A stretch of DNA of 17,369 nucleotides, from NCBI GenBank assembly GCA_900552415.1, contig USAD01000017.1, positions 1 through 17,369 of the forward strand, read 5' to 3'. Below are positions 5,246 through 17,369 of this stretch, one piece after another. The position numbers were made by a program, and so were the translations under genes. Origin of the DNA: an uncultured Parabacteroides sp. Lineage in GTDB: Bacteria > Bacteroidota > Bacteroidia > Bacteroidales > Tannerellaceae. The notes under the pieces were generated by a model, which saw only the letters and a list, made by a program, of their open reading frames with translations, searched no databases and had not been told where the DNA came from. How positions within the stretch are numbered: position 1 is the first letter of the stretch; the number at the start of each line of letters is the position of its first letter.

Positions 5246-5348
5246 TTCGAGAAAAAAAGAATTTTCTTTCGAAAGAAATTCCAATTTCCTTCGGACAAAA
5301 AGTTATTTTCTTTCGGACAAAAAGTTATTTTCTTTCGGACAAAATTTT
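5246..5348. repeat. 22-bp tandem repeat array, four units plus a partial fifth
   Basis: Units begin at 5246, 5268, 5290, 5312 and 5334. Units 3 and 4 are identical, starting TTCGGACAAAAAG and ending TTTTCT. Units 1 and 2 are diverged copies starting TTCGAGAAAAAA and TTCGAAAGAAAT. The fifth breaks off after TTCGGACAAAATTTT. Unit length is constant at 22 bases, about two helical turns. The boundary of units 1 and 2 forms a perfect 16-bp palindrome, TTTCTTTCGAAAGAAA (5263-5278). There are no unique spacers, so this is not CRISPR. The array lies between the susD terminator and the MATE gene. Confidence 0.8.
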
Positions 5349-6989: not shown

Positions 6990-7568
6990 ATGGCCCTGCT
7001 TTGCTCGATGACCATAACCCTGCAAGCGCAAGAGGCGAACGACAAGGCTGCCGAGAAAGCGGCGAAAAAAGCGGAAAAAGAGGCTAAGAAAGCTGAGAAG
7101 GAGGCTAAAAAAGCTGCGGAAAAAGCTGCGCAAGAGGCCCTCTTCCAACAGGCCTTGTTGGCTATCAATAACAAGAATTTCGTGCTCGAGGCCGATCGTG
7201 TCGAAGGTAAGCGAGGCCAGTTTGTTTACGTAAACTCGAACACCAACTTCGTGGCTGTCAATGGTGATGAGGCAACCGTTCAGCTTGCTTTGAATGGCGC
7301 CTTCTCGGGACCGAATGGTGTCGGTGGTATTACCGTCGAGGGTAAAACTTCGAAAGTGGAGATCGAGCAAGACAAAAAAGGTAACGTTTCTTTCAGCATG
7401 ATGGTACAGGGTGTTGGCATTTCAGCCCAACTGACCTTCCGTATGACCAAGGGATCGAACGAGTGTACCGCTACGATCCTGCCGAACTTCAACAGTAATC
7501 GTATTTCCTTCACCGGAAAGATCCTGCCCACGGCGCAATCAACCGTGTTCAAGGGACGGGCGCTTTGA
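6990..7568 (+). CDS. DUF4251 secreted protein, signal peptide interrupted by in-frame TAA
   Basis: The protein matches the DUF4251 family of Bacteroidales periplasmic proteins of unknown function, recognisable from KNFVLEADRVEGKRGQFVYV, NSNTNFVAVNGDEATVQ, GPNGVGGITVEG, KGNVSFSMMVQG and the FKGRAL C-terminus. Residues about 15-45 form a Lys/Ala/Glu-rich charged helix (KAAEKAAKKAEKEAKKAE), usual in the family before the beta-rich domain. The natural start appears to be ATG at 6963: it would give MKKIN, then a stop (TAA, 6978-6980), then FIAMALLCSMTITLQAQ. That is a normal signal peptide apart from the stop. Starting at 6990 leaves a very short signal without basic residues, so export of that product is doubtful. 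The 192 aa from 6990 otherwise look intact. Whether the stop is real, read through, or a sequence error cannot be seen here. Confidence 0.8.
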   Translation: MALLCSMTITLQAQEANDKAAEKAAKKAEKEAKKAEKEAKKAAEKAAQEALFQQALLAINNKNFVLEADRVEGKRGQFVYVNSNTNFVAVNGDEATVQLALNGAFSGPNGVGGITVEGKTSKVEIEQDKKGNVSFSMMVQGVGISAQLTFRMTKGSNECTATILPNFNSNRISFTGKILPTAQSTVFKGRAL

Positions 7569-8984: not shown

Positions 8985-9941
8985 TTAATGGATCAGGTCG
9001 CTCGAACGGTATTCCTCCTCGAGATAGGTTTCGATGTGCCGTTTCTTTTTCTCCTCAAGGATCTCGTTGATCGCGATCAGGATACCGGTTTCTTCTACTT
9101 CGCCAAACTCATGATTGACAGCGGTTCCGAAAACGCGCATTTTGGGTGATAGGTTCATGTAGGCGTTGACCAGTGGCGGCACGTTGATACCGAACTTGCG
9201 CACCTCCTGATTGAGTACCTTATAGTTGTCGCGGAAGTTATCGTAATGGAACAGGCTTGCGAGGCGTGCCTCGTCTCGTTTGATCTGCAGGGGCACGATG
9301 GGTGTCACCAGTTGTTCAGGATCTGGGAAATGGAGGTTAAGGAAGTTGAGAATCAAGTCGCGTGCTTCGGTATTGTACGTATTGTACATCGTGACCTTAC
9401 CGAAAAAATAGCGTAGCTTGGGATCGATGACCGTCAGGGCGCCCAGCCCGTCCCACAGGTTGTCGAGGACGAAAAGGCCTTTCGAGGCGGCCCGTGTGGA
9501 TTGATACTCGAGGGCGACAAACGAGCGGCCCAACTCGACGGTGTAGGGCAGGATCTCGTCAATGAACTTTGGCGAGAAGTTGAAGAGGTGCGAGGTGGCG
9601 AGAATTGGTTTTCCCTGTTCGTCACGACGCGTGTCGGAACCGCAGATAAAGCGATAACCGCCCAGGATCTGCTCATCCTCCGGGCTCCAGACAACCAATT
9701 GCCGATAGGCGCCGGGCATCGTATCGAACTCGTCGATATCGACCGGCTCGCCGGTTCCGCCGCCGTAAAAACGGAAGGCGATTTCGCGCAGGCGTCCGAT
9801 CTCGCGCATGACGTTAGGCGAGTCTTGTGCCGTGATGATATAGATCTCGTTGCTCGACTTGTTCGTGTTTCTCAAACGTTTCTCTTTTGTGAGTTCTGCC
9901 TTGAGCAGATTCCTGTCTATCGGATCAATAATGTTTTGCAT
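8985..9941 (-). CDS. glsB: GNAT-like N-acyltransferase, GlsB-type (glycine lipid synthesis)
   Basis: 318 aa cytoplasmic acyltransferase of the Acetyltransf_5 / hemolysin-like GNAT group. In Bacteroides, GlsB joins a fatty acid to glycine to make N-acyl-glycine (commendamide), the first step of glycine-lipid synthesis. Supporting segments are IGRLREIAFRFYGGGTGEPVDIDEFD (in part: RLREIAFRFYGGGTG, near residue 50-64), QLVVWSPEDEQILGGYRFI, and YTVELGRSFVALEYQ (about 132-146), the ELGRSxV block typical of N-acyl amino-acid synthases. This is followed by the FFGKVTMYNTYN block. The protein has no signal peptide. It lies 19 bases downstream of the PlsC-like acyltransferase gene in the same operon, as expected of a gls pair. 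The alternative is an ornithine-lipid OlsB-like enzyme; the paired gene and the Bacteroidales setting favour GlsB. Confidence 0.82.
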   Translation of the reverse strand: MQNIIDPIDRNLLKAELTKEKRLRNTNKSSNEIYIITAQDSPNVMREIGRLREIAFRFYGGGTGEPVDIDEFDTMPGAYRQLVVWSPEDEQILGGYRFICGSDTRRDEQGKPILATSHLFNFSPKFIDEILPYTVELGRSFVALEYQSTRAASKGLFVLDNLWDGLGALTVIDPKLRYFFGKVTMYNTYNTEARDLILNFLNLHFPDPEQLVTPIVPLQIKRDEARLASLFHYDNFRDNYKVLNQEVRKFGINVPPLVNAYMNLSPKMRVFGTAVNHEFGEVEETGILIAINEILEEKKKRHIETYLEEEYRSSDLIH

Positions 9942-9960
9942 ATCTTATCAGAATCGTCTA

Positions 9961-10788
9961 TTAGCATGGATGATTATAAACCAGAGTCTCGATCCGGCGA
10001 GCCCATTCAGCCGGCGTGTGTTCCTGGCTGAATGTTTGCCAGGGAATCGGCTTCAGGAAATGGATCTTGAATGTCTGGTTCTTGTTCTTGAACATCTCGT
10101 CGGCCAGGTAAAGCATCTCGATATTTGCCTTGATGCCCAGACGCTTGCGTATGTTGGCCAGGCGATAGAAGAAATTGGAGTTGTGTCCCTCGAAACGGAC
10201 GGGAACAACGTCACGATGGTATTGCAGCGCCTTTTGTATAAAAGATTTCTTCCATTCGGGATCGCGGATAATCCCTTTGGTCTTACGCGAGCAAAGTCCT
10301 GCGGGAAAAGTGATAATCTGGTTGTCGGAACCGAAAGCCTCCTCGATCAATCGTGCGTTGTCGCGGCTTTGGGAGCCATGCTTGTTGATCGGGATGAAAA
10401 TGTTCCTCAGGTTGGGAATGAAGAGCAACAGGTCGTTTACCAAATAACGGATTCGCCTGTCATAATGCTCGCCCAAAAAGGCGGAGAGACAGATACCATC
10501 CATTCCGCCAAGGGGATGATTGGAGGCGAAAATGTACCGGCCGTCTGTCGGGGGCAAGTTTTCCTTGCCATACACCTCGAGCCGCAGGCCGAACTCGCTG
10601 ACTAGCGCTCGCATGAAATCGACACCTTCAATGTCCCGATAGCGAGATAAGATATCGTTGATTTCTTCTTGGTGAACAATACGGGTCAGATAGTTGATCG
10701 CGAACTCCGGAATCTTGGGTGCGACCTTCGGCGCCTTTGAGTAAAGCACCTGCTTGATATCAATCTGTAGAGTACTGCTATCTCCCAT
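9961..10788 (-). CDS. glsA: PlsC-like O-acyltransferase, GlsA-type (glycine lipid synthesis)
   Basis: This is an acyltransferase of the PlsC/hemolysin-like family, 275 aa from the ATG at 10788. A GTG nine bases upstream (10797) would add three residues; I prefer ATG. The catalytic motif NHPLGGMDG lies at residues about 90-98, and the substrate-binding block appears as FPAGLCSRK (about 161-169), with Ala where classic PlsC has Glu (FPEG). There is no clear membrane helix beyond the amphipathic LLLFIPNLRNIFIPI. In Bacteroides, GlsA adds a second acyl chain to the hydroxyl of N-acyl-glycine, completing the glycine lipid of the envelope. It is the first gene of a two-gene minus-strand operon with the GNAT-like gene 19 bases downstream. 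It is transcribed divergently from the dcw cluster. Confidence 0.82.
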   Translation of the reverse strand: MGDSSTLQIDIKQVLYSKAPKVAPKIPEFAINYLTRIVHQEEINDILSRYRDIEGVDFMRALVSEFGLRLEVYGKENLPPTDGRYIFASNHPLGGMDGICLSAFLGEHYDRRIRYLVNDLLLFIPNLRNIFIPINKHGSQSRDNARLIEEAFGSDNQIITFPAGLCSRKTKGIIRDPEWKKSFIQKALQYHRDVVPVRFEGHNSNFFYRLANIRKRLGIKANIEMLYLADEMFKNKNQTFKIHFLKPIPWQTFSQEHTPAEWARRIETLVYNHPC

Positions 10789-10808
10789 TTCTATCACTTA
10801 ATCCGGGA

Positions 10809-11032: not shown

Positions 11033-11962
11033 ATGAAAGAGAATGAGAAAAGTTGTTATCATGTACCCGTTATGTTGAGAGAGTGCCTGGAAGGATTGGC
11101 AATCCGCCCGGATGGCGTATATGTCGATGTCACTTTTGGTGGCGGAGGGCATTCCCGTGGCATCCTGAGCCATCTTGGTGAGCATGGCTGTCTATATGGT
11201 TTTGACCAAGACGCCGACGCGGAGCGCAACGTGCCAGATGACAGCCGTTTCGTATTCGTAAGGAGCAATTTCCGTTATCTTTATAATTTCATGCGCTATC
11301 ATGGCCGTTTAGGGGAGGTAGATGGCTTGCTGGCCGACTTGGGCGTCTCTTCGCATCATTTTGATGACGAGTCGCGTGGTTTCTCATTCCGTTTCGATGG
11401 AGAGCTGGATATGCGAATGAACCGGCGAGCAGGCCGTACGGCGGCAGAGATTTTGAATACCAGCGCTGAAGAGGCTCTGGCTGACTTGTTCTATCTGTAT
11501 GGAGAGTTGAAGATCGCCCGTAAGATCGCCGCCGCGATCCTGAAAGCCAGGGATGAGCACCCGTTGCGGACGATTGAGGACCTGTTGACTGTCGTGAAAC
11601 CCTTGGTTGGTCGTGGCGAGAAAGAAAAGAAAATCTTGGCCCAGATCTTCCAGGCCTTGCGTATTGAGGTGAATGATGAGATGCGTGCTCTTCGTGAAAT
11701 GTTGGAGCAAACGACACGTGTCCTGAAGCCCGGAGGCCGTCTGGTCGTGATGACTTATCACTCACTGGAGGATCGCCTGGTGAAGAATTTCTTGAAAACC
11801 GGTAATTTCGAGGGAAAAAGCGAGCAGGATTTCTTTGGAAATGTGCGTAGTCCGTTCCGGTTGGTCAATAATAAGGTTATCGTCCCGTCCGAGGATGAGA
11901 TTGAATCGAATCCACGCTCTAGGAGCGCTAAATTAAGAATCGCTGAATTTATAGGGGATTAA
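11033..11962 (+). CDS. rsmH: 16S rRNA (cytosine-1402-N4)-methyltransferase RsmH (MraW)
   Basis: This cytoplasmic SAM-dependent enzyme methylates N4 of C1402 in 16S rRNA at the ribosomal P site. Family signatures are HVPVMLRECLEGL (residues 10-22), the SAM loop VDVTFGGGGHSRGIL (31-45), YGFDQDADA (55-63), LADLGVSSHHFDDESRGFSF (about 102-121), LDMRMN, and VMTYHSLEDRLVKNFL near the C-terminus. The closing NPRSRSAKLRIAEF is also canonical. At 309 aa it has normal length. It is the first gene here of the dcw cluster, with the ftsL-like gene 2 bases after its stop. mraZ, which usually precedes it, is missing. Confidence 0.97.
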   Translation: MKENEKSCYHVPVMLRECLEGLAIRPDGVYVDVTFGGGGHSRGILSHLGEHGCLYGFDQDADAERNVPDDSRFVFVRSNFRYLYNFMRYHGRLGEVDGLLADLGVSSHHFDDESRGFSFRFDGELDMRMNRRAGRTAAEILNTSAEEALADLFYLYGELKIARKIAAAILKARDEHPLRTIEDLLTVVKPLVGRGEKEKKILAQIFQALRIEVNDEMRALREMLEQTTRVLKPGGRLVVMTYHSLEDRLVKNFLKTGNFEGKSEQDFFGNVRSPFRLVNNKVIVPSEDEIESNPRSRSAKLRIAEFIGD

Positions 11963-11964
11963 AG

Positions 11965-12324
11965 ATGAACGAGAATATAACAAATAGCAACAATAGCGAT
12001 AAGAAAAAAGAACGTAAGATTACGTTGCTCTATATTTTGGGAGGAGGTATCCTGAAAGAGGATTTTATCCTGCGGCATACCCGTATGCTCGTATTGCTGG
12101 TCGTATTGGCCTTTTTCTTTATTGGCAATCGTTATACCTGTATGCAAAAATTGCGGGAGATAGATCGCTTGCAGCAAGAGTTGCGTGATGCCCGTTTTGA
12201 GGCTCTTTCAATCTCGTCTGAGTTGACTGGTAATAGCCGGGAGTCGCAGATCGAGTTGTTGATAGAGGAGCAGGGCATTGATCTTGAAACCGCTAAAACC
12301 CCCGCTTACGAATTGTATGAATAA
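11965..12324 (+). CDS. ftsL: FtsL-like cell-division membrane protein
   Basis: 119 aa bitopic membrane protein. A charged cytoplasmic N-terminus (Asn/Lys-rich, residues 1-40) is followed by one transmembrane helix (about 41-55, MLVLLVVLAFFFIGN). Then comes a periplasmic heptad-rich coiled coil (MQKLREIDRLQQELRDARFEAL). This is the FtsL/DivIC pattern; in the divisome it would bridge FtsQ-like and FtsI-like proteins at the septum. Sequence conservation in this family is weak, so the call rests mostly on topology and on its position between rsmH and ftsI, which is the standard dcw order. It is tightly packed: 2 bases after rsmH and 23 before ftsI. Confidence 0.85.
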   Translation: MNENITNSNNSDKKKERKITLLYILGGGILKEDFILRHTRMLVLLVVLAFFFIGNRYTCMQKLREIDRLQQELRDARFEALSISSELTGNSRESQIELLIEEQGIDLETAKTPAYELYE

Positions 12325-12347
12325 GATAAGGAACAGGATATTAAGCG

Positions 12348-14540
12348 ATGAGTGAGGAAAATGAACAAAATAAGAATCTGCCGGGAAATGGACGAATCCT
12401 GTTCTTCTATTTCGTGGTCGTATTGATGCTATGCTGCGTGGCGGCCGGTATCTTGATCTGTGCGTTCGATACCGCTTTCGTCGAGAAGGAGAAATGGCTG
12501 AAGGTGGCTGAAGAGCAAAAAAGGCCGAACCGTTTGATCCTGCCGGGACGGGGAAACATCTATTCCGCTGATGGAAAGTTGATGGCGACAAGTGTTCCTC
12601 GTTATTATATGTATATGGATTTCAAGGCAGATGTTTTCGAAACAAAGACCACGAAATGGAATGGCCGGGATACGTTCTTGAATTCTAAGACCAATGGTGT
12701 AGATTCGTTGGCTGTTTATTTGTCGCGTAAATTGAAAGATCGTACACCGGCTGGTTATAAGGCTTATTTATTGAGAGGCTTAAAAAGCAAAAGCCGGCAA
12801 TATCCAATTTTTGCGGGTAAGGTCTCTTATTCCGATTTGAAGGAGATCCAGAAATTTCCGTTCCTGCGTTTAGGTCGTTTCCGTAGTGGCTTTTATACGA
12901 AAGAGATGGTTCAACGCCAGAAACCATTTGGTTCGTTGGCATCGAGAACGATTGGGGATATTTATGGCGAGATTGAGGAAGGCGGATTGACTAAAGGAAA
13001 GAATGGTTTGGAGTTGCAATACGATTCCTTGTTGAGAGGCGAGGCGGGATTAAGCTCCGTACGCCGTTTGGGTGGCGGTTGGACAAACGTTGTGGAGGTT
13101 GAGCCGACAGACGGTTGCGACATTAAGACGACAATTGATATCCATATTCAGGATATAACCGAGAAATCGCTGGTTGACAAGTTACGTGAGATTGACGCCG
13201 AATCGGGAACCGCTGTTGTCATGGAGGTCGCGACCGGAGAGGTTAAGGCCATAACTAATATGGCTCGTATTCGTGAAGGAGTTTATGCCGAGACAAAAAA
13301 TCATGCGGTCGCTGATGAGACGGAACCCGGCTCGACTTTCAAGGTCGCCTCTATCATGGTCGCCCTTGATGATGGGGTTTGTGCGCCATCTGATACGGTA
13401 GACGTTGGTAATGGTGTGTTCATGTACAAGGGAGCCCGAATGACAGACCACAACTTGAATAGAGGTGGTTATGGACGGATATCGGTTGAGCAGGCGATTT
13501 GGTATTCTTCAAATATCGGTGTGGCAAAAACGATATTGAAAGGTTATGAGAATAATCCGCGCAAATTTGTGGAAGGTCTTTACCGGATTGGCATGAACGC
13601 TGATTTAAGACTGGAGATCCCTGGATCTGGACGTGCCAAGATCCGTATGCCGGGAGATACGCTTAACTATTGGTCCAAGACTACTTTGCCTTGGATGTCG
13701 TTTGGTTATGAGACACAAATTCCGCCTATATATACGTTGGCGTTTTATAATGCTATCGCTAATGGCGGAAAAATGATGCGTCCGATATTCACGAAAGAGA
13801 TCATAAAGGATGGAAAGACTATTCAGCATTTCTCTCCTGAAGTGATAAAAGAATCGATATGTTCCGATTCTACATTGGCGATCATACAAGATATGTTGTT
13901 GGGTGTGGTGGAAAAGGGAACAGGTAAGGCTGTTCATTCCGATATTATCCGTATTGCGGGTAAAACCGGAACAGCGCAGATCGCTTCAGGTGGTGTGTAC
14001 CGGACTAGTGGACACCAAGTGGCGTTTTGTGGTTATTTCCCTGCCGATAACCCCAAATATTCTTGTATCGTAGTTATCCGTCGTCCCAGAATTGGTTATC
14101 CTTCCGGAGGAACGATGTCTGGTGGAGTCGTAAAGGCTGTCGCTGAAAAGATTTATGCCAGCTATATGCTGTATGATGTCCGTGAGATGGAACGGGATTC
14201 TTTGGCGGTACCACTTCCGCAAGTGAAAGGAGGCAATCGGGAAGCGGTTGAAAGTGTTTTGGATGAGCTTGATATACCAACTGATGCGGATAGTTTGGAA
14301 ACAATATGGACTTTTGCCCGTCTGAGCCAAGACTCAACCAAGATAGAGCTTAGAAACTTGGAAATTCATGATGGGACAGTACCTCGTGTCATCGGAATGG
14401 GAGCTAAAGATGCTGTATATCTAATGGAAAAAGCAGGATTACGGGTCTCATTATCAGGAGTGGGGCGTGTAGTCTCACAAAGCGTTTCACCTGGAGGGAA
14501 AGTCTATAAAGGACAAACCGTGTTATTAACTTTAAGGTAA
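12348..14540 (+). CDS. ftsI: Septal peptidoglycan transpeptidase FtsI (PBP3) with C-terminal PASTA domain
   Basis: This class B penicillin-binding protein cross-links septal peptidoglycan together with FtsW. Order of parts in 730 aa: a short cytoplasmic tail, one membrane anchor (about 16-41), a PBP dimerisation domain starting near [18 protein letters not shown] and running to about residue 240, and a transpeptidase domain. The three active-site motifs are present: STFK with catalytic Ser329, SSN at 387-389, and KTGT at 539-542. A single PASTA domain ends the protein (about 680-730; [20 protein letters not shown] ... VLLTLR). Its murE neighbour starts 2 bases after the stop, so translation is likely coupled. 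PASTA-tailed FtsI is normal for Bacteroidetes. It would be a beta-lactam target. Confidence 0.96.
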
Positions 14541-14542
14541 TT

Positions 14543-16009
14543 ATGGATTTAAGAGAATTAATTAAAGCATTAGAAAACTCACGTCTGTCAGGCGATGACC
14601 AGGTCGAGATTAAAGATATCCAATCTGATTCTCGACAGGTAACCGCAGGATCATTGTTTGTGGCTGTTCGTGGAACCGCTGTTGATGGACATGATTATAT
14701 CGGGAACGCGATTGAAAAAGGAGCGGTTGCTATTGTTTGTGAGGTAATCCCCGAGGAATTAGCCAGCAAGCCGGTTTCCTTTGTGGAGGTAGGCGACTCC
14801 GCTACCGCTTTGGGAAAATTGATTTCCAGGTGGTATGGTGATCCTTCAGACAAGCTTATCTTAGTTGGTGTGACGGGAACGAATGGTAAGACTACGACCG
14901 CTACTCTTCTTTATGAGTTGTTCCGGAAATTGGGACATAAAGTTGGGCTTTTGTCGACTGTATGTAATTATATTGATGGGGAAGCAATTCCTACGGATCA
15001 TACGACTCCAGATCCTTTAACTCTTCATAGCTTATTGGCTCGGATGGTTGAGGCGGGATGTGAATATGCGTTCATGGAAGTCAGTTCTCATGCGATCGAC
15101 CAGCGGCGTATCAGTGGCTTGTCGTTTAATGGTGGTATCTTCACGAACTTAACGCGTGATCATCTCGATTATCATAAGACCGTAGATAATTATCTGAAAG
15201 CAAAAAAGAAATTCTTTGATGATCTTTCGGATAGTGCCTTTGCCCTGACTAATCTGGATGATAAATCAGGGTTGGTAATGTTGCAAAACACGAAAGCGAA
15301 GAAGTTTACTTACTCATTGCGTTCGTTAGCCGATTTTAAAGCTAAGATCCTGGAATCCCATTTTGAGGGAACTGATCTTCTGATTAATGATAAAGAGGTG
15401 TTTGTTCATTTTACGGGTCGATTTAACGCTTATAACTTATTGGCAGTTTATGGTGCGGCTGTAGCGTTGGTAAAAACGCAAGATGAGATCCTGATTGCCA
15501 TGAGTACGTTGTATCCTGTCGCTGGACGTTTTGAGACAATCCATTCTCCTTTGGGCTATACGGCAATTGTGGATTATGCCCATACTCCGGATGCCTTGAC
15601 AAACGTGTTGAACTCGATTAATGAGGTTCTTGGAGGAAAGGGACGTGTCATAACGGTTGTTGGTGCCGGAGGTAACCGTGATAAGGGTAAACGGCCTTTA
15701 ATGGCTAGAGAAGCGTTCAAATCGAGTGATCAATTGATATTGACTTCAGACAATCCTCGTTTTGAAGATCCAGAACAGATTATCCAGGATATGACGGCTG
15801 GGTTGACGCCAGAGGAAATGACACAGGTATTGTGTGTTACGGATCGGGCACAAGCCATCAAGACCGCAACCATGTTGGCTCAAAAGGGAGACGTTATCTT
15901 GATCGCGGGGAAAGGACATGAGGATTATCAAGAGGTAAAAGGCGTGAAACATCATTTTGATGACAGGGAACAAATACGTCAGATTTTCTCAACACAAAAG
16001 AGAGGATAA
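14543..16009 (+). CDS. murE: UDP-MurNAc-L-Ala-D-Glu:meso-diaminopimelate ligase MurE
   Basis: This cytoplasmic ATP-dependent ligase adds the third amino acid to the peptidoglycan stem peptide. It is 488 aa with the three Mur-ligase domains: a UDP-binding N-domain (to about 105), a central ATPase domain with the P-loop GTNGKTT (112-118) and [16 protein letters not shown], and a C-domain. The segment [12 protein letters not shown] holds the lysine usually carbamylated. The specificity motif DNPR is present at residues 403-406 (SDNPRFEDP), which marks enzymes that add meso-diaminopimelate rather than lysine. This fits Bacteroidetes wall chemistry. HEDYQ near the C-terminus ([11 protein letters not shown]) is also canonical. 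It starts 2 bases after ftsI, and mraY follows after 3 bases. Confidence 0.97.
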
Positions 16010-16012
16010 ATT

Positions 16013-16219
16013 ATGTTGTATTATCTGTTTAATTATTTAGATCAATTGGATATTCCCGGAGCTGGAATGTTTAAGTACATTTCATTCCGTTCAGGTTTGG
16101 CGTTGATCCTGTCCCTGTTTATTTCAACAGCCATCGGTCGCCGGATTATTGATCGTTTGCAATATCTCCAGATAGGAGAAACGATCCGAAATTTGGGACT
16201 GGAAGGACAAATGAGTTAG
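16013..16219 (+). pseudogene. mraY: MraY N-terminal part, ended by an in-frame amber codon
   Basis: The first 68 residues of phospho-MurNAc-pentapeptide transferase are present: the Bacteroidetes N-terminus (MLYYLFNYLDQLDIPGAGMF), the first membrane helix, and the conserved IGETIRNLGLEGQMS. Codon 69 is TAG (16217-16219), after which the same frame continues as [12 protein letters not shown], exactly the conserved MraY sequence (normally [11 protein letters not shown]). A single A-to-T change of a lysine AAG codon explains the break; there is no frameshift. MraY is an essential inner-membrane enzyme (lipid I synthesis), so a true null allele is unexpected. A sequencing or assembly error or nonsense suppression must be considered. 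It starts 3 bases after murE. Confidence 0.85.
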
Positions 16220-16234
16220 AAGGGAACACCTACA

Positions 16235-17101
16235 ATGGGAGGCATCATTATTATCATCGCGATTTTGGTTCCAACGCTTTTGTGCGCTAAGTTGGGCAAT
16301 ATCTATGTCATCCTGATGTTGGTGACCACGATCTGGTTAGGTTCTTTGGGATTCGCTGATGATTATATCAAGGTTTTCCGGAAAAATAAGGAGGGAATGC
16401 ACGGTAAGTTTAAGATTATCGGACAATTCGGTCTTGGTTTGATTGTCGGTCTGGTATTGTTCCTTAGTCCGGATGTTGTAATTCGGGAGAATATGGAGAT
16501 TCGTCATGATAATGTTATTGAAGAGGTCCGTTATCATAAGAATGAGACAAAATCAACAAAGACGACCATCCCGTTTGTCAAGAACAATAATTTCGATTAC
16601 GCGAGCTTGGTCTCTTGGGTTGGTGAATATAAGGAGGAGGCCGCATGGCTCATATTTGTTATAATGGTCATCTTTGTCGTGACTGCCGTTTCTAATGGCG
16701 CAAACCTGACTGATGGATTGGATGGTCTTGCGGCGGGAAGTTCAGCGATCATAGGTATGGCTCTTGGTATCTTGGCCTATATGTCTTCACACGTTGAATT
16801 CGCATCGTTCTTGAACATTATGTTTATCCCAGGTGCGGAAGAATTGGTGATATTTGCGGCGGCGTTTATTGGGGCAACTGTTGGTTTCTTATGGTATAAT
16901 GCCTATCCGGCCCAGGTCTTCATGGGCGATGTGGGCTCGCTGGCCCTGGGCGGTGTGCTCGGCTATCTGGCCCTGCTCTGCAAGCAGGAACTCATCCTGG
17001 CCGTGGTGGGCGGCCTGTTCGTGGCCGAGACCCTGTCGGTCATCATGCAGGTGAGCTATTTCCGCTGGACAGGCGGCAAGCGCCTGTTCCGCATTTCCTG
17101 A
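16235..17101 (+). pseudogene. mraY: MraY remainder, chimeric and missing its C-terminal HHH segment
   Basis: This continues the mraY frame after the amber codon; ATG at 16235 is the Met of PTMGG. Bacteroidetes-type MraY features follow: [21 protein letters not shown] (in part: FADDYIK, catalytic aspartates), the long periplasmic insertion typical of the phylum ([17 protein letters not shown] ... FDYASLVSW), and [16 protein letters not shown]. From [15 protein letters not shown] on, the protein turns into a different MraY ([48 protein letters not shown]) with high-G+C codons. It stops as RLFRIS at 17099-17101, where MraY proteins read RLFRMAPxHHHFE. The HHH segment and the last two helices are absent, so the encoded protein should be inactive. 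Full MraY in this phylum is a little over 400 aa. Confidence 0.85.
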
Positions 17102-17111
17102 CAACTGGACA

Positions 17112-17148
17112 AAAAAGGACCTGAACGCCATGCGTTCAGGTCCTTTTT
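17112..17148. terminator. Strong bidirectional intrinsic terminator
   Basis: GGACCTGAACGC (17117-17128) and GCGTTCAGGTCC (17132-17143) form a perfect 12-bp stem with loop CAT. It is flanked by A5-6 on the left and T5 on the right, so it is a textbook Rho-independent terminator on both strands. It sits 10 bases after the mraY-like stop and 18 bases from the opposing metG stop. Confidence 0.9.
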
Positions 17149-17165: not shown

Positions 17166-17369
17166 TCAGCACAGCTTGGCGCCGGCGGGCACGCTGTCAT
17201 CGATGAGCATCAGGTGCAGCTTCTCCTCGCCGTGTTCCCGATGGACGGCGGAGATCAGCATGCCGCAGCTGGGGATGCCCATCATCTTGCGGGGCGGCAG
17301 GTTCAGGATGGCGATGGCCGTCTTGCCGATCAGCTGCTCCGGCTCATAGTACTGGTGGATGCCGGAGAG
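17166..17369 (-). CDS. metG: Methionyl-tRNA synthetase, C-terminal tRNA-binding domain (partial)
   Basis: The last 67 residues and stop of a gene entering from the right edge on the minus strand. SGIHQYYEPEQLIGK, AILNLPPRKMMGIPSCGMLIS and LMLIDDSVPAGAKL match the EMAP/Trbp-like tRNA-binding fold at the C-terminus of bacterial MetG. There, the usual pattern is SGIxxxYxPExLxGK, then NLxPRKxxGxxSxGMxLxA. The domain also occurs as free-standing proteins (YgjH, CsaA), so a short stand-alone protein is possible, but the PxGxxV-type ending fits MetG. The gene is G+C-rich, like the tail fused to mraY and unlike everything to the left of about 16900. It probably belongs to another organism (Desulfovibrio/Bilophila-like by resemblance). 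Confidence 0.8.
   Translation of the reverse strand, partial: LSGIHQYYEPEQLIGKTAIAILNLPPRKMMGIPSCGMLISAVHREHGEEKLHLMLIDDSVPAGAKLC

What the first reader, a model, noticed from the sequence alone, without database searches (positions are those of the whole stretch)
16880..17101. mraY is a chimera of a Bacteroidetes body and a high-G+C proteobacterial-like tail
The frame stays open across an abrupt change from about 42% to about 68% G+C, inside the conserved block encoding [10 protein letters not shown]. Before it the protein has the Bacteroidetes-specific periplasmic insertion; after it the residues ([19 protein letters not shown]) resemble Desulfovibrio-type MraY. The next gene is a high-G+C metG end, whereas a Bacteroidetes dcw cluster should continue with murD and ftsW. 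An assembly join across a short identical stretch is most likely; homologous recombination between distant mraY genes is the exciting but less likely option.
Basis: partly seen in the sequence, partly recalled or inferred. Interest (0 to 1): 0.75.

Follow-up and report, generated by a model that had tools for sequence, protein, structure and literature searches.

The report
Three-source false join inside mraY
The end of this contig stitches together pieces of genes from three unrelated gut-type bacteria, almost certainly an assembly or library mistake rather than a real hybrid gene, so it is ordinary as biology but worth flagging in databases.

Summary
The mraY frame runs from Parabacteroides-type sequence into high-G+C sequence, switching inside the 30-nt block encoding [10 protein letters not shown] (16901-16930). 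The tail (16901-17094) is Desulfovibrio piger DNA: 189 of 194 bases match each of two D. piger genomes, every difference silent. The encoded MraY lacks the HHH-motif region and last helix, and the frame has an in-frame TAG at 16217. No copy of this tail was found in 123 genomes of the Parabacteroides family or 393 sampled from its order. A metagenome protein (P0122) shares the body, with two differences in 297 residues, but has another foreign tail. At least 11 of 239 listed MraY proteins, window included, look chimeric, 8 of them switching at or near this motif. Assembler join and library chimera cannot be separated without reads. Not a biological feature.

The parts
11033..16009 (+). rsmH, ftsL-like, penicillin-binding protein, murE: Parabacteroides-type cell-wall cluster leading into mraY
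   Evidence: Same gene order in the five Parabacteroides loci compared (L001, L002, L006, L009, L016); best-hit protein identity 76-90%; NCBIfam RsmH and MurE over cut-off
16013..16900 (+). mraY body, Parabacteroides-type, with in-frame TAG at 16217-16219
   Evidence: P0122 has the same residues over this part except at 69 and 280
16217..16219 (+). In-frame TAG where P0122 and the other full-length Parabacteroides-type rows of alignment A2 have Lys in [10 protein letters not shown] or [10 protein letters not shown]
16901..16930 (+). Join 1: block encoding [10 protein letters not shown], equal to D. piger L048 at 29 of 30 bases and at 28 of 30 to the three nearest Tannerellaceae segments
16931..17094 (+). 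Fragment of Desulfovibrio piger mraY
   Evidence: 189 of 194 bases over 16901-17094 against L048 and against L049, all differences silent; 97% in 2 of 2 D. piger genomes
17094..17095 (.). Join 2: D. piger mraY breaks off in mid-gene; sequence continues from a third source
17112..17148 (-). Perfect 17-bp inverted repeat (3-nt loop) ending in a T-run, just past the end of metG: terminator-like
17166..17369 (-). 3' end of metG (methionine--tRNA ligase, C-terminal domain), probably of an Oscillospiraceae relative; the contig ends inside it
   Evidence: NCBIfam metG_C_term 58.4 bits, a fragment and below the whole-protein cut-off of 116.65; 84% protein, 80% DNA to Vescimonas fastidiosa; 42% to D. 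piger MetG; 99-100% to 19 of the 120 listed proteins

Best explanation
A technical chimera at a contig end. The contig is a Parabacteroides-type genome piece up to about 16900-16930. There the assembler (or, less likely, template switching during library amplification) crossed into Desulfovibrio piger mraY through a block of up to 29-30 nearly identical bases that encode the conserved YPAQVFMGD loop. About 165-195 bases later it crossed again into the metG end of a third bacterium, probably an Oscillospiraceae relative. Shown: three different sources, the places of both breaks, loss of the MraY C-terminus. Inferred: that the left parent shares the block exactly, and that the joins were made in silico rather than in a tube or in a cell.
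For: Both mraY parents exist as ordinary separate genes: D. piger L048 encodes a full 358-aa MraY ending RMAPLHHHFE...KLR, and all 56 Tannerellaceae loci that reach mraY carry a native tail of their own type (60 loci tried, 4 end before mraY; some loci are of the same genome). The D. piger piece is unameliorated: 97% DNA identity, only silent differences. The metG piece has no more than a 24-nt match in either D. piger genome and is 42% identical to D. piger MetG against 84% to Vescimonas. The tail's best match is 68% over 162 nt in 123 genomes of the family of G004 and 71% over 164 nt in 393 of its order, while D. piger gives 97% over 194 nt in 2 of 2. P0122 carries the window's body with another tail, whose best match among 198 genomes of the order is G488 (85%; not among the family's handles) against 63% for the Parabacteroides genome G004. 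At least 11 of 239 listed MraY proteins, window included, look chimeric (with P0122 and P0126 added by eye); 8 of the 11 switch at or near this motif, and P0028 has at least two switches like the window. The product lacks the PXHHHXEXXG region, called highly conserved in PMC5039524 (passages). De Bruijn assemblers are described as meeting chimeric nodes at stretches shared between species (PMC8171044, passages).
Against: No reads or coverage could be examined. The left parent's own sequence at 16901-16930 is unknown: among 46 distinct Tannerellaceae segments the nearest differ from the window at 2 of 30 bases, and the longest exact stretch any of 56 shares with D. piger mraY is 18 nt, short of a usual smallest k of about 21 (k recalled). 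Join 2 has no demonstrated shared stretch. Searches scored at most 2 and 6 candidate places per genome, so absence rests on a near-identical copy ranking among them. One-contig status of the other chimeras is weak evidence, since many normal rows are also single-contig. The HHH motif is not invariant: P0122 and P0130 have HDH, one locus has HHY, and the same review says no clear catalytic role was assigned to the first His in the A. aeolicus structure.
Confidence: 0.95

Rival explanations
1. Library or amplification chimera: template switching during PCR or whole-genome amplification made a physical hybrid molecule that was then assembled faithfully. It is part of the artefact class above, told apart from an assembler error.
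For: Join 2 has no demonstrated shared stretch, and no relative in hand shares more than 18 nt with D. piger mraY, which suits template switching at least as well as a k-mer join.
Against: Similar switches at the same conserved motif in other assemblies with other partners suggest a general graph problem rather than one bad molecule.
Confidence: 0.15
2. Natural recombination between Parabacteroides-type and D. piger mraY in a gut community, followed by a further rearrangement with a third organism's DNA, leaving a broken mraY (possibly a second copy).
For: Join 1 is in frame at the exact homologous position inside a conserved block.
Against: Three sources in about 500 bp; tail not found in 123 genomes of the family or 393 of the order (with their candidate limits); C-terminus lost and an internal stop; same body with a different tail in P0122.
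Confidence: 0.03
3. Horizontal transfer of a D. piger mraY-metG segment into a Parabacteroides-type genome.
For: Similar G+C of the mraY tail and metG (66% and 65%).
Against: metG is not D. piger's; D. piger mraY is cut off in mid-gene; in the D. piger draft genome mraY and metG are on different contigs (G001 C46 and C43), which for a draft is only weak evidence of distance.
Confidence: 0.01

Closest known systems
Inter-species chimeric contigs in de Bruijn-graph metagenome assembly (chimeric nodes; PMC8171044, passages seen)
   Same: Join at a stretch conserved between species; different organisms on either side.
   Different: The passages speak of evolutionarily similar species; here the partners are from different phyla, and a second join follows within 200 bases.
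MraY, phospho-N-acetylmuramoyl-pentapeptide-transferase (TIGR00445)
   Same: Both halves are genuine MraY in register and together score over the cut-off (237.9 against 192.05 bits).
   Different: Halves from two organisms; internal stop; C-terminus missing.
Other apparent MraY chimeras in the protein listings: P0004, P0013, P0015, P0028, P0056, P0122, P0123, P0124, P0126, P0130
   Same: Body and tail from different lineages; P0004, P0015, P0028, P0122, P0123, P0124 and P0130 switch at or near YPAQVFMGD.
   Different: P0013 and P0056 switch at [13 protein letters not shown] and P0126 later; the others mostly run to a full-length end.
Mosaic genes by interspecies recombination, as in pneumococcal penicillin-binding proteins (recalled; seen here only as a search listing)
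   Same: Switch between homologous genes.
   Different: As recalled, known mosaics involve close relatives and leave a working gene.

Membership tests
Functional MraY | Family profile match over curated cut-off | tested here: met
   TIGR00445 237.9 bits, cut-off 192.05, for the 288-aa ORF after the internal stop
Functional MraY | Uninterrupted reading frame from the start codon | tested here: not met
   In-frame TAG at 16217-16219
Functional MraY | C-terminal loop with the PXHHHXEXXG motif and the last helix | tested here: not met
   Frame ends RLFRIS* at 17101; D. piger and the 56 Tannerellaceae genes continue through HHH (one HHY); motif from passages of PMC5039524; Bacteroidales tails with HDH exist (P0122, P0130)
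Natural interspecies mosaic gene | Joint present in a genome or in independent assemblies | tested here: not met
   Not found in 123 genomes of the family or 393 of the order (at most 6 and 2 candidate places scored per genome); no other protein in the two lists of 120 pairs this body with this tail
Natural interspecies mosaic gene | Single reads span the joint | not testable with these tools
   No reads; no whole genome held for the window
Chimeric metagenome contig | Sides from different organisms, each continuing differently in its own genome | tested here: met
   for Parabacteroides type and D. piger; for the metG source only the identity was tested, not its own continuation
Chimeric metagenome contig | Exact shared stretch long enough for the assembler's k at the joint | tested here: inconclusive
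   D. piger side 29 of 30; left parent's own sequence unknown, nearest relatives 28 of 30; longest exact stretch shared by any of 56 relatives with D. piger 18 nt

The most novel reading that the evidence does not exclude
The conserved YPAQVFMGD block of mraY is a real site of cross-phylum recombination in gut communities: the window species' body is found with a D. piger tail here and with another Bacteroidales tail in P0122, and related Parabacteroides-type bodies with non-Bacteroidota tails in P0123 and P0124.
Probability: 0.03. Interest if true: 0.75.

Novelty: not a real feature. Interest (0 to 1): 0.08.

Why it matters
As biology it probably does not matter: it is unlikely that any cell carries this gene. 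As data hygiene it does: at least 11 of 239 listed MraY proteins look chimeric (plus two by eye), 8 of them at or near one conserved loop, so protein sets built from metagenome assemblies can show false evidence of domain swapping or horizontal transfer in an essential antibiotic-target gene. The 239 are the top hits of two searches with this chimera as query, so the rate is not a general one. If the recombination reading were true, it would be a striking exchange of an essential cell-wall enzyme between phyla.

Tried and rejected
Viral contigs: the MraY chimera gave no relative; exact patterns from the metG side and from join 1 gave no match; the metG C-terminus gave three loci, 76% over 66 residues, 78% over 49 and 41% over 66, none giving a named third organism. 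The metG piece in the family of D. piger gave only matches of 24-58 nt, in 28 of 199 sampled genomes (at most 3 candidates per genome scored, so D. piger was tested again with 40). The idea that mraY tail and metG are one D. piger segment was rejected. Naming the third organism failed: the list gave no source or name for the 19 hits at 99-100%, so it rests on a plasmid collection, where Vescimonas is best (84%) but Subdoligranulum (77%) and a Collinsella record (76%) follow, and on full-length comparison. No DNA of that organism beyond its metG end was found, so join 2 could not be examined. Literature: 'mraY' with 'chimeric gene' and 'metagenom' gave 0 papers; 'mraY' with 'mosaic', 'recombination' and 'interspecies' gave 11, 10 of them listed and seen as listing only, none with a title on cross-phylum mraY. 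Searches were read as listings, with passages of one paper from each.

Full report
OBSERVATION. The frame 16235-17101 is open and crosses from 42.1% G+C (16013-16900) to 65.9% (16931-17094); third-position G+C goes from 47% to 91%. Read from the mraY start at 16013, the frame has a TAG at 16217-16219 where P0122 and other full-length Parabacteroides-type homologues have lysine, so the gene as a whole is not open.

LEFT PARENT. In the one scan of genome contigs the ftsL-like neighbour matched Parabacteroides and other Tannerellaceae (best 90% protein identity, L001). The order rsmH, ftsL, PBP, murE, mraY is the same in the five Parabacteroides loci compared. DNA similarity runs continuously to about 16930 and stops there in most loci. 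In 123 genomes of the family of G004 (the genome of L001; the tool names no group, I take it to be Tannerellaceae), 115 match 14543-16900, the top-scoring one at 74% over the full length, so the exact species was not found. Of 60 Tannerellaceae-type loci tried, 4 end before mraY and 56 gave an intact gene; all 56 have a native tail of one type (FKYTKK-like, then PLHHHFQ or, once, PLHHYFQ). My script looked for genes with GDTGSL after the motif, but no locus that reaches mraY was lost by that; some of the 56 are the same genome fetched twice.

MIDDLE PARENT. 16901-17094 matches Desulfovibrio piger L048 and L049 at 189 of 194 bases each; the five differences from each are at third positions and silent. 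In D. piger the gene continues to a normal 358-aa end. In the window it breaks at 17094 and the frame ends RIS* at 17101.

RIGHT PARENT. 17166-17369 (minus strand) is a metG end, with a terminator-like inverted repeat just beyond it. It is 84% identical in protein and 80% in DNA to Vescimonas fastidiosa (Bacillota, Oscillospiraceae), the best of 11 records in a plasmid collection, followed by Subdoligranulum (77%) and a Collinsella record (76%). It is 42% identical in protein to D. piger MetG, with no more than a 24-nt match in either D. piger genome. Of 120 listed proteins 19 are 99-100% identical over its 67 residues; one of them stands for 6120 member sequences. Two full-length ones are 80% and 85% identical to V. 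fastidiosa MetG and 37-38% to D. piger MetG.

THE JOINS. Join 1 lies in 16901-16930, which equals D. piger L048 at 29 of 30 bases. In 46 distinct Tannerellaceae segments the block differs from the window at 2 to 8 of 30 bases. The odd base, T at 16930, is C in both D. piger genomes and T in 38 of the 46 (counted from the listing), so it may be the last Parabacteroides-type base or a D. piger strain difference. Against a simple k-mer story, the longest exact stretch between D. piger mraY and any of the 56 genes is 18 nt, at this block in L031; the longest stretch lies at or near the block in 24 of 56. The parent species is unknown, so its block could still be identical. Join 2 shows no homology that I could test.

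IS THE JOINT ANYWHERE ELSE? For 16901-17101 the best match is 68% over 162 nt in 123 genomes of the family (32 with some match) and 71% over 164 nt in 393 genomes of the order (70 with some match); shorter matches of up to 96% over about 25 nt also occur. D. piger gives 97% over 194 nt in 2 of 2. Searches scored at most 2 and 6 candidates per genome, so a near-identical copy would be missed only if it ranked below those. In protein space, P0122 (one contig, 5207 bases) shares the window's body, with two differences in the first 297 residues, the stop and V280I. Its tail matches best, among 198 genomes of the order, G488 (85%), which is not among the family's handles, against 63% for the Parabacteroides genome G004.

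OTHER CHIMERAS. Of 239 MraY proteins listed have the motif used for splitting and were compared with two Desulfovibrio-type and two Parabacteroides-type references; 9 were not classified. The script flagged ten, of which P0220 is only truncated; P0122 and P0126 I added by eye. That makes at least 11 with the window: P0001, P0004, P0013, P0015, P0028, P0056, P0122, P0123, P0124, P0126, P0130. Eight switch at or near YPAQVFMGD (P0001, P0004, P0015, P0028, P0122, P0123, P0124, P0130), two at [13 protein letters not shown] (P0013, P0056), and P0126 later, into an integrase-like tail. P0028 and P0130 show at least two switches each. P0123 and P0124 have bodies 99% like the Parabacteroides-type references; P0013, P0015 and P0056 have bodies 41-49% and tails 93-100% like the Desulfovibrio-type ones. 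Each of the ten others is listed with one member and one contig, but so are many normal proteins. That the tails of P0123 and P0124 are not Bacteroidota-type rests (48% and 62% to the Desulfovibrio-type references against 39% and 45%); finer placing would be recall.

FUNCTION. The protein keeps MraY's central loops but lacks the PXHHHXEXXG region and the last helix. Passages of PMC5039524 call MraY essential and the motif highly conserved, list H289 and H290 of B. subtilis among catalytically important residues, and also say no clear catalytic role was assigned to the matching H324 in the A. aeolicus structure. With the internal TAG too, this gene is unlikely to serve as a cell's only MraY. 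A natural event would have to be in a dispensable copy, for which I have no evidence.

CONCLUSION. False join at a contig end, 0.95; within that, an assembler join seems more likely than a library chimera. Passages of PMC8171044 describe stretches shared between species as the cause of chimeric nodes in de Bruijn assemblies.

Noticed in passing
window 16217-16219: In-frame TAG in mraY where homologues have Lys; with V280I it is one of only two differences from P0122 over 297 residues. Sequencing error or strain variant cannot be told.
   Followed up: partly
P0126 (protein): Parabacteroides-type MraY running into an integrase-like C-terminus (listed with PF00589), another likely chimera.
   Followed up: no
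P0028 (protein): MraY that looks like a mosaic of at least three pieces, with a Desulfovibrio-type middle and another kind of end after HHHFE.
   Followed up: partly
P0008-P0012 (proteins): D. piger-type MraY sequences with different internal deletions, each listed with one contig: perhaps further assembly faults.
   Followed up: no
window 8985-10797 (minus strand): Two genes, 8985-9941 and 9961-10797, beside rsmH; at the same relative place in four of five Parabacteroides loci compared, with no match in L001.
   Followed up: partly
window 5285-5344 and 7053-7116: Short tandem repeats: 22-bp unit x2.7, and 21-bp unit x3 encoding a Lys/Ala/Glu-rich stretch of the ORF at 6990-7568.
   Followed up: no
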